Below, piece by piece: positions 50,014 to 61,203 of a DNA stretch of 64,000 nucleotides (position 1 is its first letter; each line of letters begins with the position of its first letter). The notes under the pieces were generated by a model. The model saw only the letters and a program-made list of their open reading frames with translations, did not search any database and was not told the DNA's origin. Origin of the DNA: Xylanimicrobium pachnodae JCM 13526 = NBRC 107786 (GTDB taxonomy: Bacteria; Actinomycetota; Actinomycetes; Actinomycetales; Cellulomonadaceae); assembly GCA_001592145.1 (NCBI GenBank), contig BCWJ01000003.1, positions 124,001 through 188,000 on the forward strand, in the 5' to 3' direction. A program made the position numbers and the translations under genes.

Positions 50014-50265
50014 ATGGTTCAGATGACGAGCCGGGAGTTCAACCACGACACCGCGGGCGCCAAGCGCGCCGCCGCTGAGGGCCCCGTCGTCGTCACGGAT
50101 CGAGGGCAGCCGTCGCACGTGCTGCTGACCTACTCCGATTACCTCGAGCTCGCCGGACTGCGACTCGACTTCACGGACCTCCTGGGCAGGCCGCACGGTG
50201 TCGAGGACGTCCACTTCGAGGTGCCGACGAACCGTGAGCTCCCGAGGCCCGCGGAGTTCGCATGA
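50014..50265 (+). CDS. Phd/YefM-family antitoxin
   Basis: An 83-residue antitoxin. The N-terminal part VQMTSREFNHDTAGAKRAAAEGPVVVTDRGQPSHVLL is the Phd/YefM DNA-binding fold. The C-terminal part (DVHFEVPTNRELPRPAEFA) would wrap the toxin. GGAGGAG precedes the ATG. It overlaps the toxin gene by 4 bases (ATGA) and should repress its own promoter at the upstream palindrome. Confidence 0.92.
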   Translation: MVQMTSREFNHDTAGAKRAAAEGPVVVTDRGQPSHVLLTYSDYLELAGLRLDFTDLLGRPHGVEDVHFEVPTNRELPRPAEFA

Positions 50266-50690
50266 GCTTCCTCCTGGACACCAACGTCGTCTCGGAGCTG
50301 CGCAAGGTGCGCTCCGGCCGCGCCGACGTCAACGTCGCTGCGTGGGTGCGCGGCGTGCCTGCTGTCGAGCTCCACGTCTCCGCCGTGAGCATCCACGAGC
50401 TCGAGTATGGCGTCCGGCTCGCCGAGGCCCGCGACCCCGCGCAGGGCGAGATCCTGCGTCAGTGGCTGGACCGGTCCGTCCTGGTGGCGTTCGCCGGGCG
50501 CATCGTCCCTGTCGACGACGTCGTCGCCCGGCACGCCGCGGCCCTGCACGTGCCGGACCCGGCGCCGTACCGCGACGCGTTCATCGGCGCGACCGCACTG
50601 GTACACCGGATGACCCTGGTGACGCGGAACGTGCGGGACTTCGAACGGTTCGACGGGCTCGCCGTGCTCGACCCGTGGCCGGGCGGGTGA
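50262..50690 (+). CDS. PIN-domain toxin (VapC/FitB family)
   Basis: A 142-residue predicted ribonuclease toxin. The PIN acidic residues are all present: Asp in FLLDTNVVSEL (residue 6), Glu in SIHELEYGV, Asp in DAFIGATA, and Asp in TRNVRDFERF. The family's usual RNA target is tRNA or rRNA; the specific target is unknown. The length and the Phd-type partner point to the FitB-like branch. Intact and probably functional. Confidence 0.93.
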   Translation: MSFLLDTNVVSELRKVRSGRADVNVAAWVRGVPAVELHVSAVSIHELEYGVRLAEARDPAQGEILRQWLDRSVLVAFAGRIVPVDDVVARHAAALHVPDPAPYRDAFIGATALVHRMTLVTRNVRDFERFDGLAVLDPWPGG

Positions 50691-50787: not shown

Positions 50788-51578
50788 TCAACGCCGACGG
50801 CGGACCAGGGATCCCATGACCCTGCGGAAGCGCGTCGGCCAGTCGTCCGGGGTGAACCGGACCGGCGTCGTCGGTGGTGGCGGGGTGGTTACGTCCGGAA
50901 CCGCCCCCGCCGCATCTGCCTCGTCGTCCGCTGGTATGTGCTTGACGTAGGGGCGCACCGGTGCGACAGCCAGTTGGAGGGACTGTTCATTCAGGAACGA
51001 GAGTGTCCCCGGCTGGAGGAAGACGATGGCGCCAGTGCTCGGGAGGCTCCCGCTGGCATGAATTGTCTCGAAACTGACTACGTCGTCGCTTCCAGGCCTC
51101 CGCGTGTGGATCACCTTGCGGGGCGTGCCGTCCTCGACACCGATCACGAAGGTGGCACCTGAGCGCCGCCAGAGGTCGAGGTGGAGGGTGTCGACCATGC
51201 GCGGTCGTTGATTCGCGCCGCTACCAGGAAAAGGATCCCGATGCTCCGCGGTATCCGTGCAGGGGTGTTTCGGCCAGGGATGCCCCAGCTCGTCGAAGTA
51301 GACGCGTGAGCCGTGCTCGTTGGAATGGAAGTACACCAGCGCGCCACAGACTGGGCATCGTGCGTTGGGGACGACCAAGCGTGGCCGAGACCTTGCGATG
51401 GGGGATGGCCAGGAGTCGCGCCCCGTGCGGGTTGGAGCGGGAGCCGGCGTGGAACGGGGTGTGTACGTGCTGGCCGTGACTGACCTGAGCCTTCACGGGT
51501 GACCGAGTGCGCGTTGACCCACGTCCGGGTGCCGTTCTTGTTGGTGCGGTAGTGGCCCGAGCGGCGGTACGTCGTCAC
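50788..51578 (-). pseudogene. Zinc-ribbon protein gene with a frameshift
   Basis: The GTG at 51578 overlaps the Res stop (GTGA) and begins TTYRRSGHYRTNKNGTRTWV, then NAHSVTREGSGQ. In that frame the sequence then becomes unlike protein. In another frame, open from about 51485, a Pro/Thr/Arg-rich linker leads to VVPNARCPVCGALVYFHSNE, SRVYFDELGHPWPKHPC (a four-Cys/His zinc ribbon) and a C-terminal domain ending at 50788. Joining them needs one extra base near 51480. So the gene is frameshifted, or the sequence lacks a base, or expression starts internally (for example TTG at 51378, 196 residues). I recognise the two-part layout from actinobacterial hypothetical proteins, but not a function. Confidence 0.75.
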
Positions 51579-54500
51579 GAGGGCGCTCCCACGATCGTGA
51601 GCAGCTCCGCGTAGGAGTCGACGACGTCGTAGGTCACGTCGGCATTCTCCTTTGCGTTGAGCGCATCGAAGAACCGCTTGGCGCACTCGATCTTGGCCTC
51701 CTCAGCACCCTTGAGCTGGAGGGATGACAGCGACCCCTTCGTCTCGGCGACGAAGTAGATGTGCTTGGTGCGCCCCTCGTGGAAGGCGATCGCCCAGTCC
51801 GGGTTGTAGTCCCCGACGGGGGTGGGGATGAAGAACCCGCGGGGGAGCTTCGCGTAGACGGCCACCTCCGCCGCGGCATCGAGCTGCTCGACGAACCGCC
51901 GCTCTACCTTCGAGTCCGTCACCACGTAGTCGTACACGTGCTTGTTGAGCTTGCGCGACGCCTTGGTGAAGTCCTGCTTCGTCTGGTTCTGCGTGAAGAT
52001 CGCCGACTCGAAGTGCTCGTCAAGGGTGTCGTAGGCCAGGTGCTCGATGATCACCGTGGCCTTCTGTTCGGTGATGATCCGGGACGCCTCGGTGATGAAG
52101 TGTTCCGGGTTGGCCCGGTACAGGCTGAACGTGGCGGGGGAGATGCCCTGGAGGATGGCGGCGCAGGTGCGCCGCGTGAGCTTGGTCTTCTCCGCGACCT
52201 CGCCCAGCAGGTCGTACTTCACCTGTGACCGCGCCGAGGCCTCCGTATGCGTGCTGCTGCTGCGGCGCTCGAAGCCGTCACCGGTGCGCAGGCCGTCGGC
52301 GTCGAGCGCCTCGGACTGCAGGCCGGTCTCGACCACGTACTGGAGCGGCGCCACGCGCAGGGTCTTGTCGAGCTTGTCGACGCTCTTGCGGATGAGCTCG
52401 GCCGAGTCGAAAGCCACCTGGTAGACGACCTTGTGGTTGATGCGCGACCAGAGCTGCTGGAACTCCTTGCGGTGGAAGTTCGCGTCGTTGAGCGGGATCG
52501 CCTTGGGGCGCCGTCCGTCGCTCGGCTCGGGCAGGCCGCGCGCGACGACGTCGACGACGGGGAGCAACGCAGCGAGCACGGCGGGCGCAAGGAGACCCTT
52601 GGCCGGTGGGGCGGCGAAGTCCTGCGCGGCGCTCGCGGCCCGGTACTCGTCAGTGACGTGACCGTCGCCGGTGAGGTAGCCGTTGTACTCGAGGTAGGTG
52701 ACGAGCGCATGCGCCAGCTCCTTCTCGACGACGGTGGGTTCGCCGTCGAGGACGAACGTCTTGCCCACCAAGTACGCCTCGGTGACCTTGCGAGGCCGCC
52801 CGGCAGTAGCCTCGGCCAGCTCGTGCTGCAACCCGGAGACGAAGTCCGTGTACGACTCGTCGGTCACGACGGTCAGCTCGTTGATCTCGTGGACCAGCGC
52901 CTCGCCCACGGACTCCTTGTCGCGGCGGTTGCCCTGCTGATCGACGGCGAGGCGCAGCCCGCGGCCGATCTCCTGGCGCCGCGAGATGGTGTTGTCCGAC
53001 TTCTTGAGCATCCCCATGACGAACACGTTGGGGTTGTCCCACCCCTCACGCAGCGCCGAGTGGGAAAAGATGAATCGCACCGGCTCCTCGAACGACAGGA
53101 GTTGCTCCTTGTTCTTGAGGATCAGGTCGTACGCCGACGTGTCCGTCGAGCTGCCCTTCTCATCCCCTGTCCGGGCAACCTTCGGGTCGATCTGGCGGCC
53201 CTTCTTGTCGACGGAGAAGTACCCGGCGTGCGTGGCGGCGACGTCGATCGACTCCAAGTGGGCGCGATACCTTGCGGCGTCGTCGTCAAGGTCGAGCTGC
53301 GCATACGCGTCGTTCAACGCCTCGCGGTACTCCTCCTCGAACCAGCGCTGGTAGTCGCCCCGGGTGTCCTCGCGCTCGTAGTCGCGGTACTTGGCGACCT
53401 CGTCGATGAAGAACAGGGACAGCACCTTGATGCCCTGCGCGAAGAGCTGCCGCTCCTTGTCCAGGTGGGCGTGGATCACCTCGCGGATCTGGATGCGCCG
53501 CTTGGTCTCCTCAGTCACGTCCCGGTCGGCGAGCTGCCCGACGACGACGATGTCGCCGTTCGAGAGCTCGATGACGTCCCGGACGGCGTCGATGTCGGTG
53601 ACCACGAGGTTGCGGTACGCCTCAAGCCTGCCGGACAGGTCGTGCAGGCGGGTTCCCTTCTCCACCCAGCGCACCTGGCGGGTGATGGCCGTCTTACCCT
53701 GTACCGCGATCTCGACGCGCGCCCGGGGCAGGGCACCCTTGCGCACCTCGATGGTGTCGACGTACAGGTACGCGCTGGACCCTGACAGGCCCCGGACCGT
53801 GATGCCGCGCACCGCGATGCGCTTGACCAGCTTGTCGTTGTACGCGTCCACCGCGTCGAGCCGGTGCACCAGGTTGTGCCGCACCTTGTGCGTGGCCGAG
53901 TAGCGCAGGATGGCGAGGGCGTTGAACCGGGAGAGCGCCTCCAGTGACTTGGCGGCGCCGATCTTCTGCGGCTCGTCGATGATGACGATCGGGCGGTTCG
54001 CGGCGATCACGTCGATCGGCTTCCGGGACTGGAAGTCGTCGAGCTCCTCGTAGATGCGCCGGGCGTCCTTGCCGGTCGCGTTGAACGCCTGGATGTTGAT
54101 GATCATCACCTGCACGCCCGGGCTCGACGAGAACGACTCGACCTCGTGCAGGCGTGACGAGCTGTAGACGAACGCGCGCGGCTTGGTGCCGTACTCCTGC
54201 TGGAAGTGGTCGGCCGTGACCTCGAAGGACTTCATGACGCCCTCGCGGATCGCGATCGACGGCACGACCACGATGAACTTGCTCCACCCGTAGCGGCGGT
54301 TCAGTTCCATCATGGTCTTGATGTAGACGTAGGTCTTGCCCGTACCCGTCTCCATCTCGACGTCCAGGTTCGGGGCACCCTTCGCAGCGGCCGACGATGC
54401 CAGCGACGCGGACCGCTCGAGCAGAGGGTCCTGGGACTGAACCTGCTGGACGTTGCTGAGCAGGACGTCCGCCGGCAGCACGATCTCCGCGTTGCGGAAG

Positions 54501-54727
54501 CCGGAGTCCGGGGCATCAGGGCGAGTCCCGTGGGTCGCGCCTGTCGAGGCCCCGATCCCGAGTTCGCCCTGCACGGGTGTCCCCGCGGCGACCGACGCGG
54601 GCGCCGCGTGTCGACCCGGATCGATCCGGTACTCGACGCCCGACGTCTTCGGCTGGCCGGCGAAGCAGTCGACCACCGCGTCCACGGCCTCCGTCTGATA
54701 GCCCTGGACCTTGAACTGGAGCCGCAT
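51575..54727 (-). CDS. res: Type III restriction enzyme, Res subunit
   Basis: A 1,050-residue superfamily-2 helicase/nuclease. It carries METGTGKT (Walker A, 125-132), IIDEPQ (the DEPQ box of type III Res, 251-254), RYSATH (motif III), ALREGWDNPNVF and SRRQEIGRGLRL (motifs V and VI). At the C-terminus a PD-(D/E)XK nuclease site is seen: NPDWAI near 976 and VAETKGS near 994. It should cleave DNA in complex with Mod, driven by ATP. The ATG shares one base with the Mod stop (TGATG). Its length is typical of the family and all catalytic motifs are intact. Confidence 0.93.
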   Translation of the reverse strand: MRLQFKVQGYQTEAVDAVVDCFAGQPKTSGVEYRIDPGRHAAPASVAAGTPVQGELGIGASTGATHGTRPDAPDSGFRNAEIVLPADVLLSNVQQVQSQDPLLERSASLASSAAAKGAPNLDVEMETGTGKTYVYIKTMMELNRRYGWSKFIVVVPSIAIREGVMKSFEVTADHFQQEYGTKPRAFVYSSSRLHEVESFSSSPGVQVMIINIQAFNATGKDARRIYEELDDFQSRKPIDVIAANRPIVIIDEPQKIGAAKSLEALSRFNALAILRYSATHKVRHNLVHRLDAVDAYNDKLVKRIAVRGITVRGLSGSSAYLYVDTIEVRKGALPRARVEIAVQGKTAITRQVRWVEKGTRLHDLSGRLEAYRNLVVTDIDAVRDVIELSNGDIVVVGQLADRDVTEETKRRIQIREVIHAHLDKERQLFAQGIKVLSLFFIDEVAKYRDYEREDTRGDYQRWFEEEYREALNDAYAQLDLDDDAARYRAHLESIDVAATHAGYFSVDKKGRQIDPKVARTGDEKGSSTDTSAYDLILKNKEQLLSFEEPVRFIFSHSALREGWDNPNVFVMGMLKKSDNTISRRQEIGRGLRLAVDQQGNRRDKESVGEALVHEINELTVVTDESYTDFVSGLQHELAEATAGRPRKVTEAYLVGKTFVLDGEPTVVEKELAHALVTYLEYNGYLTGDGHVTDEYRAASAAQDFAAPPAKGLLAPAVLAALLPVVDVVARGLPEPSDGRRPKAIPLNDANFHRKEFQQLWSRINHKVVYQVAFDSAELIRKSVDKLDKTLRVAPLQYVVETGLQSEALDADGLRTGDGFERRSSSTHTEASARSQVKYDLLGEVAEKTKLTRRTCAAILQGISPATFSLYRANPEHFITEASRIITEQKATVIIEHLAYDTLDEHFESAIFTQNQTKQDFTKASRKLNKHVYDYVVTDSKVERRFVEQLDAAAEVAVYAKLPRGFFIPTPVGDYNPDWAIAFHEGRTKHIYFVAETKGSLSSLQLKGAEEAKIECAKRFFDALNAKENADVTYDVVDSYAELLTIVGAPS

Positions 54728-56619
54728 CAGATTGCCTTGAAGATCGTGTCAGGCGAGACCTCGCGGAAGACCTGCTCGGCGTTGATCCGCGCGGCATCAT
54801 CGGCGAACGCCGAGTCGCGAACGGCAACACCGACCGGCGCGCGCTCGGCGATCGCGCGAATCACGTCGACGGTCAGCGTGCTGTCGAAACATGCGACGAG
54901 GGTCCCCTCATCGACATCGAAGACCTCGGCCCCGGCGATGGTCACTCGCTCGATCGGCAAGTCGATCGGCAGGCCCCAATCGAGCAGCACCTGGAAGAGA
55001 AGGTCCTCGGCTGTGCGGCAGGGCTTGATCGAGTCGGTGCTGAGAGCGAGCGTTTCTTGCTCCTGCTCGTCAGGCGTGCGGAGGAGATCGGCCATGTTTG
55101 TCGACTCCACCCGGAACACTCGGAAGCCGACGTCGAGGCACTCGGCATCCAGTCCAGCAGTGGTGCGAACCTCCGCAGCGGATGTTCGAAGCCGCCTGCG
55201 TGCGACCTCCGCGACGCTTTCGGAACTCGATCCATGCTGGATCGGTTCCGCCACCTGAACGAGCGCAAACCGGCGCGCCCCGCCGTCTGCCGCGTTCTGA
55301 GCGATTACGGCATGGCCGGTCGTACCCGAGCCAGCGAAGAAGTCAAGCACAATATCATCATCAGAAGTGAGCCACCCAACTGCGCGGCGAACAAGTTCGA
55401 CATTTTTCTCAGTGTCGAACTCGCCCGTTTCACTCCCGGCTAGCGTAACGTCCATCCAATTGTCACTAAGCAGTTTCCCCTCGCTAGGCGGAACGTAGTA
55501 CTGCACGCTTCCCTCATCGTTGAGCCGTACGAAGTTTAGCTTTACGTTGGTTGACATGAGGTGATCAATGTAGTGTTCGTCGAGCGTCAGGCTCGTCCCG
55601 CTCGCAAGGAATCTCTCGTAGTTCGCTACTGCCGTCGCGGTGCGCGATTCCTCCCAGCGCCACTGACCTGATGTCGGACGAATTCCAAAAAGTTCGTAGC
55701 GCATTGTCGGTCGATCGGTTCCCCGCCAGAACGTGTCCCATTTCCCTGGCCTTCCCTGGGAGTGAGTCATGCTCAGTTTCGGGAGACGCATCATACCGCT
55801 TCGCGCGTACATGAGAATGTATTCGTGTCCCTGAGCGAGAGCTGACACGTCATCGAACTGAGCCTGGACATTCTTGATTCCGCGGCGGACGGCAATCACG
55901 TTTTTGAACGACGAAGCACCGAAGATCTCGTCGCACAATGAACGAAGCTGATGTACTTCGTGGGCGTCAATGCTGACCAGGATAACTCCACTCTCGGATA
56001 GAAGGTCGCGAGCGAGTCGAAGACGGGGCATCATCATGGAGAGCCACAGGGAGTGGAATCTTCCGATCGACTCAGAGTTCGTGTGAAGCTGAGCGCCCGT
56101 GTCGTTGTTCTGTCCAGAACGCTTGAGGTACTCCACGTTCGTCTCGGCGTAGTTATCGGGATATACAAACCGGTCTGAACCCGTGTTGTAGGGCGGATCG
56201 ATGTAGATGAGCTTGACCTTGCCCAGGTAGCTTTCCTGGAGGAGTTTGAGGGCGTCCAGGTTGTCGCCCTCGATGAAGATGTTCTTCGTGGTGTCGAAGT
56301 CGACGGACTCCTCGCGGACGGGGCGCAGGGTCTTGGCGATGGGTGCGTTCGCGGCGAAGAGGGCCTCACGCTTGCCGGGCCAGTCGAGCTGGTAGCGCTC
56401 CTGAGGGCCCTCGACGACGTGGTCGGAGAGCTCCTGGCGGAGCAGGTCGAAGTCGATGGCCTTGGCGTAGCAGTCGCGCGAGTGGGTGTGGGCAGTGGCT
56501 TCGATGGGCTCGACCACCGGGCACACCAGGCGCTCCGTGACCACCGTGGGGAACAGCTCAGCAATCTTGTCGATGTTCGCCTGGGTCAGGTCGGGCGAGT
56601 GCATTCTCAGCTTCTCCAC
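54727..56619 (-). CDS. mod: Type III DNA methyltransferase, Mod subunit
   Basis: A 630-residue adenine-N6 methyltransferase that gives the type III complex its sequence specificity. GTG at 56619 yields MEKLRMHSPDLTQANI, the standard Mod start, and follows GAGGA. The catalytic motif DPPYNTGSD is at about 141-149; the SAM-binding motif DFFAGSGTTGHAV is at about 426-438, so motif order is beta class. Between them lies the target-recognition domain, encoded by DNA much poorer in G+C (about 54% at 55321-55440 and 50% at 55441-55500 by hand count) than the rest, suggesting that this domain was exchanged. It overlaps DUF4391 by 13 bases. Confidence 0.94.
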   Translation of the reverse strand: MEKLRMHSPDLTQANIDKIAELFPTVVTERLVCPVVEPIEATAHTHSRDCYAKAIDFDLLRQELSDHVVEGPQERYQLDWPGKREALFAANAPIAKTLRPVREESVDFDTTKNIFIEGDNLDALKLLQESYLGKVKLIYIDPPYNTGSDRFVYPDNYAETNVEYLKRSGQNNDTGAQLHTNSESIGRFHSLWLSMMMPRLRLARDLLSESGVILVSIDAHEVHQLRSLCDEIFGASSFKNVIAVRRGIKNVQAQFDDVSALAQGHEYILMYARSGMMRLPKLSMTHSQGRPGKWDTFWRGTDRPTMRYELFGIRPTSGQWRWEESRTATAVANYERFLASGTSLTLDEHYIDHLMSTNVKLNFVRLNDEGSVQYYVPPSEGKLLSDNWMDVTLAGSETGEFDTEKNVELVRRAVGWLTSDDDIVLDFFAGSGTTGHAVIAQNAADGGARRFALVQVAEPIQHGSSSESVAEVARRRLRTSAAEVRTTAGLDAECLDVGFRVFRVESTNMADLLRTPDEQEQETLALSTDSIKPCRTAEDLLFQVLLDWGLPIDLPIERVTIAGAEVFDVDEGTLVACFDSTLTVDVIRAIAERAPVGVAVRDSAFADDAARINAEQVFREVSPDTIFKAI

Positions 56620-57380
56620 GGGGGTTCCTCTGCGGTCGGGGTGCTGGTCAGGGCGGTGAGGTCGGCGACGCGCGCGCGGAGGACCCGGTTGACCTCGGCG
56701 CGGCGGTTGAACTGCTTCTCGGTGCGCACGCGCCGCTCCAGGGCCGCGATCTCTCGTTCGAGCCGGCGGATCGCGGTGGTGCGCTCCGTGGACTGGACGA
56801 GGGACTCGCCGGGGCGTGCGGGGTGGGGGAGGAGCGGGGCCAGGAGGGCCGTGTGGAGCGCGGCGAGGTCGAGCGCGGGGGGCAGCGGGGCGCGCGGGGC
56901 GGTGGATGTGAGCCAGTCGGTGGTGAGAACGGGTGCCGTGCGGTCCTTCGTGGGGGTGGCCGCGAGGCGGATCCACGTGCCTGTTGAGGGCTCTGGGTTC
57001 CGCGACTTCGCGCGGAATGACGCAGGGTGCTCCGGTGAGGGGTGGTGGACCTCGAGGAGGAGGGGGGCGGGGATGGCTCGGTTGATCGTGGTGAGCACGG
57101 CGTCGGCGACGTCGTCGATGCCGGGCTTGAGGGCAACTTCCAGGACCTCGATCTCCGGGACCGCGTCGGTCGCGGGCAGGCCCGTCGTGGCGGGTGCGAG
57201 CTTGTAGGCCCAGGTCACCTGCGCCACCTGAGAGACGAACTGCTCACGAACCCGGTTCGGGACGTTGGCGTGCTCGTAGAACTTGGACTTGGGGACCACG
57301 CGGCCGAAGCGGGCGCGGGTGGGCCAGAGCCAGAGCGTGGGTCCTGTGGCGCTCCGCGATGACGAAGAGGGCTCAGTCAT
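56607..57380 (-). CDS. DUF4391 protein
   Basis: A 257-residue protein. It shows TRARFGRVVPKSKFYEHANV, QFVSQVAQVTWAYKLAPATTGLPAT, VPEIEVLEVAL and a C-terminal coiled-coil-like stretch (IRRLEREIAALERRVRTEKQFNRRAEVN), which together fit DUF4391. The family is usually encoded between a helicase and a DNA methyltransferase, as here, and its biochemical role is unknown. The LP-ARPGES-like segment (HPARPGESLV) is conserved in the family. Overlaps of 8 and 13 bases with its neighbours imply a fixed ratio with the helicase and Mod. Confidence 0.85.
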   Translation of the reverse strand: MTEPSSSSRSATGPTLWLWPTRARFGRVVPKSKFYEHANVPNRVREQFVSQVAQVTWAYKLAPATTGLPATDAVPEIEVLEVALKPGIDDVADAVLTTINRAIPAPLLLEVHHPSPEHPASFRAKSRNPEPSTGTWIRLAATPTKDRTAPVLTTDWLTSTAPRAPLPPALDLAALHTALLAPLLPHPARPGESLVQSTERTTAIRRLEREIAALERRVRTEKQFNRRAEVNRVLRARVADLTALTSTPTAEEPPWRS

Positions 57381-60300
57381 GAGGGGCTTCGACGATGGCG
57401 AGGAAGGCGATCAGCTCGAAGTCGTCGAGGCCCTGGATGACGCTCGTCAGCGCCGTCGTCGGACCCGGCGTGAACAGCGAGTCGACGTCCGACTCGGCGG
57501 CCTTTCCGATGATCGACTCGATCGCCGCCGTGAGCAGGTCGGAGTAGTGCCCCATCCGGGCGCCGTCGTCGGTCGCCTGGTTGAACACGCGTGTGACGGC
57601 GTCGACCGGTGCCGTGTGGGGTCGGCAGCCCGCGCGGGCCAGGTCGAGCAGCCGCTTGACTTCGGTGTGGTCGGCGATGACCTCGCCGTCGTCGGACAGG
57701 TAGACGAGGTAGTGCGGGTGCAGGCGGTTGCCGCGGTTGATGCGCTCGTCGGCGGTGAGGTTGCGCAGCGCGAAGATCACGCCAGGCCGCAGGCCCACGG
57801 CGGGATCGGCCGGGACGACGGCGTGCAGTCCCTTGGGGGCGCCGTCGAGCGGGCCGGACTCCTTGACGTACGCGAGCAGGTCCATGCGGAACTCGTTGAG
57901 GCCCAGGTCCGTGATCGAGACACCCGTGCGGACGTCCTCGAGCTCGATCACCTCGTCCTGGAGGCGGCGGAGCTGCTCGCGGCGGAACGCGGCGTCGCTC
58001 GACTCCTGCGTGAGCACGTTGTCGTCAGCCGTCGCGGACAGGTCCGCGATCACCATCCGGTTCTCGACCCGCTCCTTGAGGTTGATGTACGCATCGAGCG
58101 AGATGTCGGGCCAGAAGTTCACCATCTGGATCTGCGCGTTGGTCGACCCGATCCGGTCGATCCGGCCGAACCGCTGGATGATCCGTACCGGGTTCCAGTG
58201 GATGTCGTAGTTGACCAGGAAGTCGCAGTCCTGAAGGTTCTGGCCCTCCGAGATGCAGTCCGTGCCGATGAGCACGTCGATCTCGCGGGTGTCGCCCTTC
58301 ATCACCAGGTCGCGGTGTTTGGACCGCGGCGAGAACAGAGTGAGCACCTCCGCGAAGTCGAGGGTCTCGCGACTGTGACGGGGCAAGGTGGTTCTTGCGT
58401 GACCCGAGCCGGTGACGGCGGCGAGCTCCAAGCCCAGGTCGGCGGCGTACGGGGCGAGGTTCCGGAACAGGTAGTCCGCCGTGTCGGCGAACGCGGTGAA
58501 GATGATCGCCTTGCGGTTCCCGGTGTTGAGCGGGTTCTCCTGCTTGGCGCGCAGGCGAGCCGCGAGTGTCTGCAGCTTGGTGTCGTGCGCCGGGACGATC
58601 GGCTCGATCGCGGCGAGGATCAGATCGAGCGTCGCCGCGTCCGACGCCAGCTCGCGCCGCCACGAGATCGTGTCCATGTCGGCCAGGTCGATCTGCACCG
58701 TGCGGCCCACCGTCGCCGACGTCGGCACCTCGACGTCGTCGTCCTCGCCGACGTCGGCAAGGCCCGCCCCCAGGTCCGTGACGGTCATACCGTGGGTGTC
58801 GACGGCGTCGATCGCCTCGGTGATCGTGCCGCGGACCTTGCCGAGGGTGAGGCGGAACGCCTCGATGGACGACTCCAGCCGCTTGAGGAGGTTGACCGTC
58901 ATGAGCTTCTGCACGCCGCGCTCACGGTTCGCCTGCCCCAGGTTCGCCATCGACCCACCGGCCCGGTTGGGACCCTCCCCGGCGCCATACCTCTCCTCGT
59001 ACTTGGCGCGGGCACTCTCATGGACGAACGCCATGGGCGTGTAGACGGCGAGCGTCAACGACGCGAGCAGGTCGTACAGCTCGTCGAACGTCGGTGCGTC
59101 TGGCAGGTCGGTCAGCGCCGGCCGCAGCGCCTCGGGGCGCAGGCGCTGCGGGAACGCGCCGATGTCCGTCGTGTCGTAGAAGCGCTGGACCTGCTGGCGC
59201 GAGCGCGCGATCGTGACCGCGTCCAGGATCTCGAAGAAGTCGAAGTCGAGCCGGCGCAGGATCTCCGCCGTCGTCCGCTGCTCCGGGGGCAGCTCCGACC
59301 ACGCGTTGAACGCCGTCTGCGCCTGCCGGAAGATCGAGTCGATCGTCCCGTGGATCGGGAGCTTGCCCGCAAGCTGGTCCGCGTCACCCTCGTACGCGAG
59401 CTGGAGCTGGCTCTTCAAGTCGTTGAAGCGGTTGTTGACCGGGGTAGCCGAGAGCATCAGCACCTTCGTCTTGACGCCTTCCCGGATCACCCTGCGCATG
59501 AGGCGCTGGTAGCGGGACTCCCGGTCGATGAACTCCGCCGCGTTGCGGAAGTTGTGCGACTCGTCGATGACCACCAGGTCGTAGTTGCCCCAGTTGACCC
59601 GCGACAGGTCCATGCCCAGCGACTCGCCACGATCCCGGGACAGATCCGTGTGGGCGAGCACGTCGTACGCGAACCGGTCCTTCGCGAACAGGTTCGTCGT
59701 GTAGTTGCGGGTGTACGTGGTCCAGTTGTCCGCCAGCTTCTTGGGCGTCAGCACCAGCACCGACTTGTTGCGCAGCTCGTAGTACTTGATCACCGCCAGC
59801 GCCGTGAACGTCTTTCCCAGCCCCACGCTGTCCGCCAGGATGCAGCCGTTGTACGCCTCGAGCTTGTTGATGATCCCGACGGCGGCGTCGTGCTGGAAGT
59901 TGTACAGGGCCTGCCACACCTGCGAGGACTCATGGCCGACGTCCTCGTTGGGGAGCGAGTCCTCCGACAGGTCGCCGAGGAACTCCTCGAACACGTTGAA
60001 CAGGATGAGGAAGTAGATGCGCGCCGGGGAGTTCTCCGCGAACACCTGGCTGATGTGGTCGTAGACCGCCGACGTGACGTCATCGACCTGCGCCGGGTCG
60101 TGCCACACCTGCTCGAACAGGGTGGCGAACAGCGTGGTCTGCGGCGCCTCGACCTTCATGGTCAGACTCGACACCGCGTCTGACCGCTCGTAGCCGAGAT
60201 CGGCCGCCGTGAAGCCCTGCAGCGGCTGATACGCGGCGGCGTCGTCGACGACCGCGAACTGCTGCATCGGCCGCCCTGTGCGGTTCGAACGGAACCGTGC

Positions 60301-60651
60301 CTTGCGGCGCACCCAGTCGGCGCACTCGCGCGCGATCGCGCGCTGCGTGAGGCGATTGCGGAGCCGCACCTCGAACTCGGAGCCGTGAAGCCCACCACCC
60401 GACGACGACGGCGCCGGGATGAAGAACTGGCGGCGCTCACGGGCTGTCGCGCCCGGGACGGCCGTGGGCTCGGTGAACGTGGGGGAGGTGAAGACGAACT
60501 GGAGCTCGTCGACCTGCTCCAGTTCCTCGCGCAGCGCTTCGAACGCGAAGATCGAGAACGTGGCCGCCGCGATCCGGAGCCGTGAGCCGCGGTGAAGGGT
60601 CGCCTTGAGATCGTCGCCCAGCAGAGTGTTGACGTTGTCGATGATCTGCAC
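57373..60651 (-). CDS. SNF2-type helicase with PLD-like N-terminus
   Basis: A 1,092-residue superfamily-2 ATPase. Residues 22-60 (SRLRIAAATFSIFAFEALREEL) resemble the first strand-helix of a PLD-like module, but no HxKxxxxD is seen, so any nuclease activity is doubtful. The motor has ADSVGLGKT (273-281), VIDESHNF (DESH, 363-366), LSATPVNN (about 400), IGTDCISEGQNLQDCDFLVNYD and RIIQRFGRIDRIGS. That DESH/FGRIDRIGS set is the SNF2/RapA style of double-stranded DNA translocase. It is first in the defence operon, with a GTG start. Probably translocates on DNA or remodels the Mod-Res complex; this is inference. Confidence 0.9.
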   Translation of the reverse strand: MQIIDNVNTLLGDDLKATLHRGSRLRIAAATFSIFAFEALREELEQVDELQFVFTSPTFTEPTAVPGATARERRQFFIPAPSSSGGGLHGSEFEVRLRNRLTQRAIARECADWVRRKARFRSNRTGRPMQQFAVVDDAAAYQPLQGFTAADLGYERSDAVSSLTMKVEAPQTTLFATLFEQVWHDPAQVDDVTSAVYDHISQVFAENSPARIYFLILFNVFEEFLGDLSEDSLPNEDVGHESSQVWQALYNFQHDAAVGIINKLEAYNGCILADSVGLGKTFTALAVIKYYELRNKSVLVLTPKKLADNWTTYTRNYTTNLFAKDRFAYDVLAHTDLSRDRGESLGMDLSRVNWGNYDLVVIDESHNFRNAAEFIDRESRYQRLMRRVIREGVKTKVLMLSATPVNNRFNDLKSQLQLAYEGDADQLAGKLPIHGTIDSIFRQAQTAFNAWSELPPEQRTTAEILRRLDFDFFEILDAVTIARSRQQVQRFYDTTDIGAFPQRLRPEALRPALTDLPDAPTFDELYDLLASLTLAVYTPMAFVHESARAKYEERYGAGEGPNRAGGSMANLGQANRERGVQKLMTVNLLKRLESSIEAFRLTLGKVRGTITEAIDAVDTHGMTVTDLGAGLADVGEDDDVEVPTSATVGRTVQIDLADMDTISWRRELASDAATLDLILAAIEPIVPAHDTKLQTLAARLRAKQENPLNTGNRKAIIFTAFADTADYLFRNLAPYAADLGLELAAVTGSGHARTTLPRHSRETLDFAEVLTLFSPRSKHRDLVMKGDTREIDVLIGTDCISEGQNLQDCDFLVNYDIHWNPVRIIQRFGRIDRIGSTNAQIQMVNFWPDISLDAYINLKERVENRMVIADLSATADDNVLTQESSDAAFRREQLRRLQDEVIELEDVRTGVSITDLGLNEFRMDLLAYVKESGPLDGAPKGLHAVVPADPAVGLRPGVIFALRNLTADERINRGNRLHPHYLVYLSDDGEVIADHTEVKRLLDLARAGCRPHTAPVDAVTRVFNQATDDGARMGHYSDLLTAAIESIIGKAAESDVDSLFTPGPTTALTSVIQGLDDFELIAFLAIVEAPHD

Positions 60652-60787: not shown

Positions 60788-60803
60788 GCCATGTATACAT
60801 GGC
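60788..60803. promoter_or_regulatory. Perfect palindrome in the helicase-XRE divergent region
   Basis: GCCATGTATACATGGC is a perfect 16-bp palindrome in the 186-base gap between the helicase gene (minus) and the XRE regulator gene (plus). Its centre, TATAC, could also serve as -10 on either strand. This is where an XRE controller protein would bind to tune both the restriction operon and itself. Confidence 0.65.
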
Positions 60804-60837: not shown

Positions 60838-61203
60838 ATGCCCCGGGAGACGCCACTCGATCGCGAGACTGCTCTCGCGTTCGGCACGCGCCTTCAGATC
60901 CTCCGCAAAGCCGCGGGACTGACGCAGGAGCGGGCCGCGGAGCGGGCGCACATGAGCCGCAACCACTTCCAGCTGCTGGAGTCGGGGCTCTCGGACCGGG
61001 CCAAGAAATCACCCGCCAACCCGTGCCTGGGGACGCTCGTCAACCTGGCCACGGTCCTGGGGTGCACGGTCGGTGACCTGGTCGAAGGCATCCCGGGTGC
61101 CGGTGCGGTAGCACGGCGCGAGCCGGAGATCGTCGTGACCGCAGTGCCGGCGCATGCCCGGGCACGGCGCACGGCCGACTCGGCGGGCCGGCTCCGTTCC
61201 TGA
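60838..61203 (+). CDS. XRE-family HTH regulator
   Basis: A 121-residue regulator. The Cro/C1-type HTH spans about 14-78: FGTRLQILRKAAGLTQERAAERAHMSRNHFQLLESG, then LVNLATVLGCTVGDLVEGI. The C-terminal 40 residues are Arg/Ala-rich and of unknown role. Divergent from the restriction operon, so it is probably the controller that delays restriction until methylation is established, like C proteins of type II systems. Alternatively it is a plain local repressor. GAGG lies very near the ATG. Confidence 0.85.
   Translation: MPRETPLDRETALAFGTRLQILRKAAGLTQERAAERAHMSRNHFQLLESGLSDRAKKSPANPCLGTLVNLATVLGCTVGDLVEGIPGAGAVARREPEIVVTAVPAHARARRTADSAGRLRS

What the first reader, a model, noticed from the sequence alone, without database searches (positions are those of the whole stretch)
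51575..60651. Expanded type III restriction operon: SNF2 helicase, DUF4391, Mod, Res and a zinc-ribbon gene
Five genes are chained by overlaps (8, 13, 1 and 4 bases), so they are made as one unit. Classical type III systems have only mod and res. Here a second large DNA translocase with a PLD-like start and a DUF4391 protein precede them, and a zinc-ribbon gene follows. The overlaps are seen directly; Mod and Res identities rest on family motifs. That the extra proteins change the defence mechanism is inference. I know of no established name for this combination.
Basis: partly seen in the sequence, partly recalled or inferred. Interest (0 to 1): 0.8.

Follow-up and report, generated by a model that had tools for sequence, protein, structure and literature searches.

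The report
Four-gene type III restriction system
The window holds a bacterial anti-phage restriction system in which the usual methylating and cutting proteins come with a second DNA motor, whose own cutting domain has lost its active site, and a small uncharacterised protein; the same four genes in the same order recur in many bacterial phyla, so this looks like a distinct, unnamed subtype.

Summary
The four large genes and their overlaps are real; the fifth (zinc-ribbon) gene reads as broken, split over two frames. SNF2 helicase (HEL), DUF4391, Mod and Res form a conserved module. Starting from HEL, 62 of 63 genome loci with room carry DUF4391-Mod-Res in order. Starting from DUF4391 in three phyla, 47 of 52 loci with room carry all four genes. 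HEL and DUF4391 are not passengers.

HEL begins with a phospholipase-D (PLD) fold like that of the restriction enzyme SauUSI. The active site is absent in 175 of 175 Mod+Res-linked HELs and present in one clade of 5 HELs found without Res, beside large methylases with a weak, remote DUF4391-like stretch. Evolutionary distances link DUF4391 to HEL, HEL to Res, Res to Mod.

Most likely HEL is a nuclease-dead translocase that DUF4391 couples to a type III enzyme. No function was tested. In the nearest published case, Eco86II (Murray 2021), the extra helicase is of another SNF2 subfamily and DUF4391 is absent. Verdict: a new, widespread variant of type III restriction-modification.

The parts
57373..60651 (-). 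HEL: SNF2-type helicase/translocase with N-terminal PLD-fold domain lacking the HxK/GSxN active site; helicase motifs present (GLGKT, DESH, SATP, QRFGR)
56607..57380 (-). DUF4391 protein (PF14335): alpha/beta domain plus C-terminal helical hairpin in the model; no convincing match among solved folds
54727..56619 (-). Mod: type III beta-class methyltransferase (DPPY, then FFAGSG) with a variable region between the motifs, taken as the target-recognition region
51575..54727 (-). Res: type III SF2 ATPase with C-terminal endonuclease domain PF19778 (PD...ExK motif present)
50788..51578 (-). zinc-ribbon gene that reads as broken: matching parts at about 51578-51489 and 51438-50956 lie in different frames (open frame of the second runs to 50788); occasional accessory, not core
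60838..61203 (+). divergent HTH gene, possible regulator (HTH_31)
   Evidence: small HTH genes also lie upstream of HEL in L197, L203 and L212
60788..60803 (.). perfect 16-bp palindrome between the HTH gene and HEL, possible operator (inference)

Best explanation
It is a four-component type III restriction-modification system. Mod recognises and methylates an asymmetric site and Res is the nuclease (by family; shown for relatives such as EcoP15I, not here). HEL is a second ATP-driven motor: a PLD-helicase whose nuclease site is missing (shown by sequence) and that is kept as a double-strand DNA translocase (inferred). DUF4391 is the adaptor that binds HEL and couples it to the recognition and restriction machinery (inferred). 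Classical Mod2Res uses ATP mainly as a switch and then slides to find a second site; here HEL would add powered translocation, roadblock clearing or long-range communication before Res cuts (inferred).
For: Co-occurrence and order. HEL motifs identical in 114 of 114 aligned sequences; Res and Mod catalytic residues invariant or nearly so (for example Res D977 108 of 109, K997 109 of 109, Mod DPPY 113 of 113). PLD fold by Foldseek: PssA 8yr6 1.2e-4, SauUSI 7clg 2.7e-4, NgoAVII R protein 4rct 8.4e-3. Active site absent in 175 of 175 Mod+Res-linked HELs, present in 5 of 5 HELs of a sister clade with no Mod or Res detected behind them. Distance partial correlations over 114 sets: HEL-Res 0.73, HEL-DUF4391 0.53, Mod core-Res 0.33, HEL-Mod core 0.18, DUF4391-Mod core 0.03, DUF4391-Res -0.11. 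Sub-threshold DUF4391 matches in all 5 sister methylases; profile-profile score 47.8 against at most 25.2 in 100 column shuffles. Type III ATPase as switch, type I/ISP and SauUSI ATPase as translocase: PMC7913695 (passages).
Against: In the analogous Eco86II system the extra helicase (of another subfamily) was not needed for methylation, and no peptides of it were found in the active enzyme preparation (PMC8259958). The HELs with an active site form a single clade, so the loss pattern is one evolutionary contrast. Distance correlations can reflect shared history, not contact. The sister-methylase match is below Pfam's cut-off in all 5, and my own DUF4391 profile run over all ORFs found only 1 of the 5, at E 0.1. 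No translocation, complex or phenotype was tested.
Confidence: 0.45

Rival explanations
1. HEL-DUF4391 is a control module: it senses phage or replication-linked DNA, or restrains and licenses Res so that newly replicated or unmodified host DNA is not cut. It changes when Res cuts, not how.
For: HEL has no nuclease site and co-varies most with Res; operons also pick up other genes inside them; a helicase acts as sensor in Hachiman (PMC12278908, start of abstract in the listing).
Against: No direct evidence; about half of Actinomycetota type III Res genes manage without it (11 of 22 PF19778 hits over 80 bits lie within 10 kb of DUF4391; my comparison).
Confidence: 0.25
2. HEL and DUF4391 are a separate second defence that shares the operon and acts on its own, for example on phages with modified DNA.
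For: The HEL family occurs in another setting without Mod-Res (L170, L173, L177, L188).
Against: 47 of 52 DUF4391-first loci with room carry the full set; HEL tracks Res more closely than Mod does.
Confidence: 0.15
3. HEL-DUF4391 helps modification (Mod activity or specificity).
For: A remote DUF4391-like stretch lies in the methylase of the sister loci; two thermophile type III Mods need Res to methylate (PMC8259958).
Against: Neither HEL nor DUF4391 distances follow the Mod target-recognition region (r = 0.05 and 0.08).
Confidence: 0.1
4. Plain type III system with passenger genes.
For: Some type III systems lack HEL and DUF4391 (L201, L205, L206, L207).
Against: Presence and order are conserved in loci from at least ten phyla, judged by record titles, and in DUF4391-first samples.
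Confidence: 0.03

Closest known systems
Classical type III restriction-modification (EcoP15I)
   Same: Mod and Res are members by sequence: EcoP15I Mod 4zcf E 1.1e-43, Res 4zcf E 3.5e-66; same mod-res order and motifs.
   Different: Two extra conserved genes, HEL and DUF4391, upstream.
Eco86II/BspHIV group of m4C type III systems with an extra helicase (Murray et al. 2021, PMC8259958, whole text read)
   Same: An additional SF2 helicase gene without a PD-ExK motif lies 5' of mod and res; consistently close in more than 500 genomes according to the paper.
   Different: The NCTC86 locus (L211) has no DUF4391; its helicase best matches DrmD (664 bits), has no PLD region before the motor, and matches HEL only in two helicase stretches (27% of 294 and 32% of 161 positions). 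Mod matches in two short stretches; Res has no significant match (best E 0.05). That L211 is Eco86II rests on strain and gene order.
SauUSI, a PLD-helicase restriction enzyme (PMC7913695, abstract and passages)
   Same: N-terminal PLD fold followed by an SF2 motor.
   Different: SauUSI has the HxK(x)4E nuclease motif and its own recognition domain; HEL lacks the motif and sits with Mod and Res.
PADLOC model C3a139 'HKD+Snf2' and the sister loci L170, L173, L177, L178, L188
   Same: HEL matches this model best (391 bits in the window, 454 in L170, 408 in L188).
   Different: The sister loci keep the PLD active site and show no Res; an Eco57I-type methylase follows in L170, L173, L177 and L188, and in L178 the contig ends inside the next gene.

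Membership tests
Type III restriction-modification | Mod with beta-class motifs and internal recognition region | tested here: met
Type III restriction-modification | Res with SF2 ATPase and C-terminal PD-(D/E)xK nuclease | tested here: met
Type III restriction-modification | adjacent mod-res operon | tested here: met
   1-base overlap
Type III restriction-modification | only two components | tested here: not met
   HEL and DUF4391 conserved. This narrows the subtype rather than membership, since three-gene type III systems are published (PMC8259958)
Type III restriction-modification | single-strand methylation of an asymmetric site and ATP-dependent cleavage about 25 bp away | not testable with these tools
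   needs SMRT sequencing and enzyme assays
Eco86II/BspHIV helicase group | extra helicase of the Eco86II family directly 5' of mod | tested here: not met
   the identity of L211 as Eco86II is inferred from strain and gene order
PLD-SF2 nucleases (SauUSI type) | PLD fold | tested here: met
   on a predicted model
PLD-SF2 nucleases (SauUSI type) | HxK catalytic motif | tested here: not met
DISARM | DrmD equivalog score for the helicase | tested here: not met
   148 bits against a cut-off of 610; HEL also cross-matches a DrmA helicase model at 66 bits, and the PADLOC list shown was 25 of 44
Type-2 BREX-related system (PMC12839542, passages) | active HKD nuclease-Snf2 helicase; DUF3780 partner | tested here: not met
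   HKD site absent; no DUF3780 hit in the 8 window proteins scanned

The most novel reading that the evidence does not exclude
A distinct subtype of restriction enzyme: a type III complex that works with an obligatory second motor, a nuclease-dead SNF2/PLD translocase docked through DUF4391, and so combines type III recognition and cleavage with type I/ISP-like powered translocation. It would have arisen when a PLD-helicase/methylase system merged with a type III system, handing cutting to Res, with the methylase's DUF4391-like domain living on as a separate subunit.
Probability: 0.38. Interest if true: 0.78.

Novelty: new variant of a known kind. Interest (0 to 1): 0.6.

Why it matters
Type III systems are usually described as two-gene machines. 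The DUF4391 gene that marks the four-gene form was found in 13 of 396 genomes of the window's phylum (own genome included), 21 of 349 of a second and 31 of 348 of a third phylum (each count includes a centre genome picked because it has the system), and near about half of the strong Res-domain hits in the first. No PADLOC or NCBIfam model matched the window's DUF4391 protein at E 0.001, so annotation tools built on them would not join the parts. If the motor idea holds, this is a testable case of a restriction enzyme that separated cutting from translocation, and it gives DUF4391 a first function.

Tried and rejected
Rejected: passengers. Rejected: HEL as an active PLD nuclease in this system. 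Rejected: identity with the Eco86II helicase group. Rejected: DISARM. Rejected: DUF4391 as a partner that follows Mod specificity. Led nowhere: DUF4391 fold search in solved structures (best E 0.25) and viral models (best E 0.49); DUF4391 relatives in viral contigs from the single sequence (none of 26 stretches confirmed); sequence search of solved structures for DUF4391 (E 2.6 and 2.8 only).

Caveats. In viral contigs 36 of 48 loci with room had the full order; 4 of the other 12 are sister loci. The Actinomycetota DUF4391-first loci include close kin of the window's genome. Exceptions among DUF4391-first loci with room on both sides: L023 and L025 (DUF4391 alone), L034 (no Res), L036 and L300 (no HEL); L258, at a contig edge, shows no Mod or Res in 7.9 kb. 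The narrow motif pattern was chosen after seeing the alignment; the wide pattern H.K gave 1 of 141 Mod+Res-linked HELs (L134, without GSxN). The HEL set holds some near-identical sequences. Gaps are measured stop to stop, so they overstate overlap. Of the hits, fragments, second pieces and the two centre genomes (already held as L074 and L118) were not fetched. In the sister loci the ATPase was tested by Pfam only in L170 (AAA_29 above cut-off, SMC_N below); in L177 and L188 it was recognised by eye; in L173 none was seen and L178 is cut short.
Full report
1. Observation. The genes lie on the minus strand as HEL 60651-57373, DUF4391 57380-56607, Mod 56619-54727 and Res 54727-51575, with overlaps of 8, 13 and 1 bases. 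A relative of Mod begins in much the same way (L073), which supports the GTG start. The fifth gene reads as broken: the intact relative directly behind res in L024 matches the window in two different frames. G+C is lower over the island (0.62-0.68 in the 2-kb windows from 50 to 60 kb) than in most of the window, in keeping with horizontal arrival (inference).

2. It is a module. Scanning the species-genome collection with a HEL profile gave 80 loci, the best of 579 candidates, from at least ten phyla judged by record titles. Of the 63 with 9 kb or more behind HEL, 62 carry DUF4391, Mod and Res in this order on the same strand; the exception, L073, carries DUF4391 and a truncated Mod. In viral contigs 36 of 48 do. 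Starting instead from DUF4391 (PF14335), the full set is present in 13 of 17 Actinomycetota loci with room (relatives and phylum draws), 12 of 12 loci of a second phylum draw (centred on the Pseudomonas genome of L074) and 22 of 23 of the remaining loci (centred on the Anaerotignum genome of L118, plus L301 from the second draw). Plasmid and chromosomal examples include E. coli, Acinetobacter, Mycolicibacterium, Shewanella, Enterococcus and E. coli CFT073 at a tRNA-Leu gene; CFT073 HEL is 58% identical to the window's. In a Listeria plasmid (L200) the middle genes are shorter and annotated apart, but the DUF4391 profile still matches (73 bits). At DNA level, relatives of the CFT073 HEL gene occur in 88 of 5426 E. 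coli genomes. Two-gene type III systems also exist: of 22 Res-domain hits over 80 bits in Actinomycetota, 11, the window's own included, lie within 10 kb of DUF4391 (my comparison).

3. HEL. The predicted N-terminal 245 residues (mean pLDDT 80) match PLD-fold enzymes, among them the restriction enzymes SauUSI and NgoAVII. In SauUSI the catalytic motif is HxK(x)4E (PMC7913695, passages). Among 215 HELs, none of the 175 linked to Mod and Res has HxK(M/L)Y at that place, whereas the 5 HELs of the sister loci have HGK(M/L)Y and GSSNF. Three Mod+Res-linked HELs keep only a GSxN- or GSC-like remnant, which suggests decay from an active ancestor (inference). The five form one clade (support 1.0), so this is one contrast, not many. 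Behind four of them (L170, L173, L177, L188) no Mod or Res was detected in about 10 kb but an Eco57I-type methylase was; in L178 the contig ends inside the next gene. The helicase motifs examined are identical in 114 of 114 aligned HELs.

4. DUF4391. The model is confident (mean pLDDT 88) but has no convincing match among solved folds. In the sister loci, 5 of 5 methylases have a DUF4391-like stretch near the N-terminus, each below Pfam's cut-off (E 8.6e-5 to 0.029). A profile comparison gives probability 88.7 and score 47.8; 100 column shuffles reach at most 25.2 and reversal 15.7. Against this, my own DUF4391 profile searched over all ORFs found only one of the five, at E 0.1. If real, the fusion suggests that DUF4391 links HEL to the recognising subunit (inference).

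5. Co-variation. Over 114 complete sets, partial correlations of distances are HEL-Res 0.73, HEL-DUF4391 0.53, Mod core-Res 0.33, HEL-Mod core 0.18, and near zero or slightly negative for DUF4391-Mod core (0.03) and DUF4391-Res (-0.11). The pattern persists when HEL, Mod core and Res are cut to the length of DUF4391. The variable Mod region correlates with nothing (r 0.04 to 0.08), as expected if it is exchanged between lineages. In the subset of 81 closer sets DUF4391-Res rises to 0.23. The chain DUF4391-HEL-Res-Mod suits an assembled machine, but shared ancestry contributes.

6. Mechanism. Shown: gene content, order, conserved motor motifs, missing nuclease site, conserved Res and Mod motifs. 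Inferred: HEL is a translocase, DUF4391 is its adaptor, and together they act in the restriction step. Support comes from the contrast drawn in PMC7913695: type III ATPases act mainly as a switch, while related motors in type I, type ISP and SauUSI translocate. Against: the helicase of Eco86II, analogous in position but of another subfamily, was dispensable for methylation and not detected in an active preparation (PMC8259958). I give this reading 0.45.

7. Known or new. Murray et al. 2021 (whole text read) describe type III systems with an extra helicase directly 5' of mod, including Eco86II of E. coli NCTC86. The type III locus that I found in that strain (L211) is SNF2-Mod-Res without DUF4391, with a DrmD-like helicase related to that of a Cupriavidus three-gene locus (45% identity) but only distantly to HEL, and a Res without significant similarity. 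That L211 is Eco86II rests on strain and gene order; the paper's text gives no accession that I could check. Searches of the held open-access library found DUF4391 in one paper, in an unrelated table, and no description of this combination (searches; passages of further papers). Most subscription papers and REBASE were not searched. I therefore file it as a new variant of type III restriction-modification.

Noticed in passing
L170, L173, L177, L178, L188: Sister loci: HEL with intact PLD active site, followed in four of them by a large Eco57I-type methylase with a weak DUF4391-like stretch; an SMC/RecF-like ATPase follows in L170 (Pfam) and, by eye, in L177 and L188. Possibly a separate defence system.
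   Followed up: partly
L020, L026, L042, L046, L086, L116, L122, L185: Two mod genes in one operon; a cluster of 12 ORFs between mod and res has a tested member (L116) with an SLFN_AlbA_2 domain.
   Followed up: partly
L058, L069, L105: Other genes inserted inside the operon: GmrSD_N, Bro-N and RhuM family proteins.
   Followed up: no
window 50014-50690 (+): Phd-like antitoxin (below Pfam cut-off) and PIN-domain gene side by side next to the operon's downstream end.
   Followed up: no
window 60788-60803: Perfect 16-bp palindrome between the divergent HTH gene and HEL, a possible operator.
   Followed up: no
L180: HEL followed directly by Res with no Mod detected.
   Followed up: no
L023, L025: DUF4391 genes with no HEL, Mod or Res detected within about 9 kb.
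   Followed up: partly
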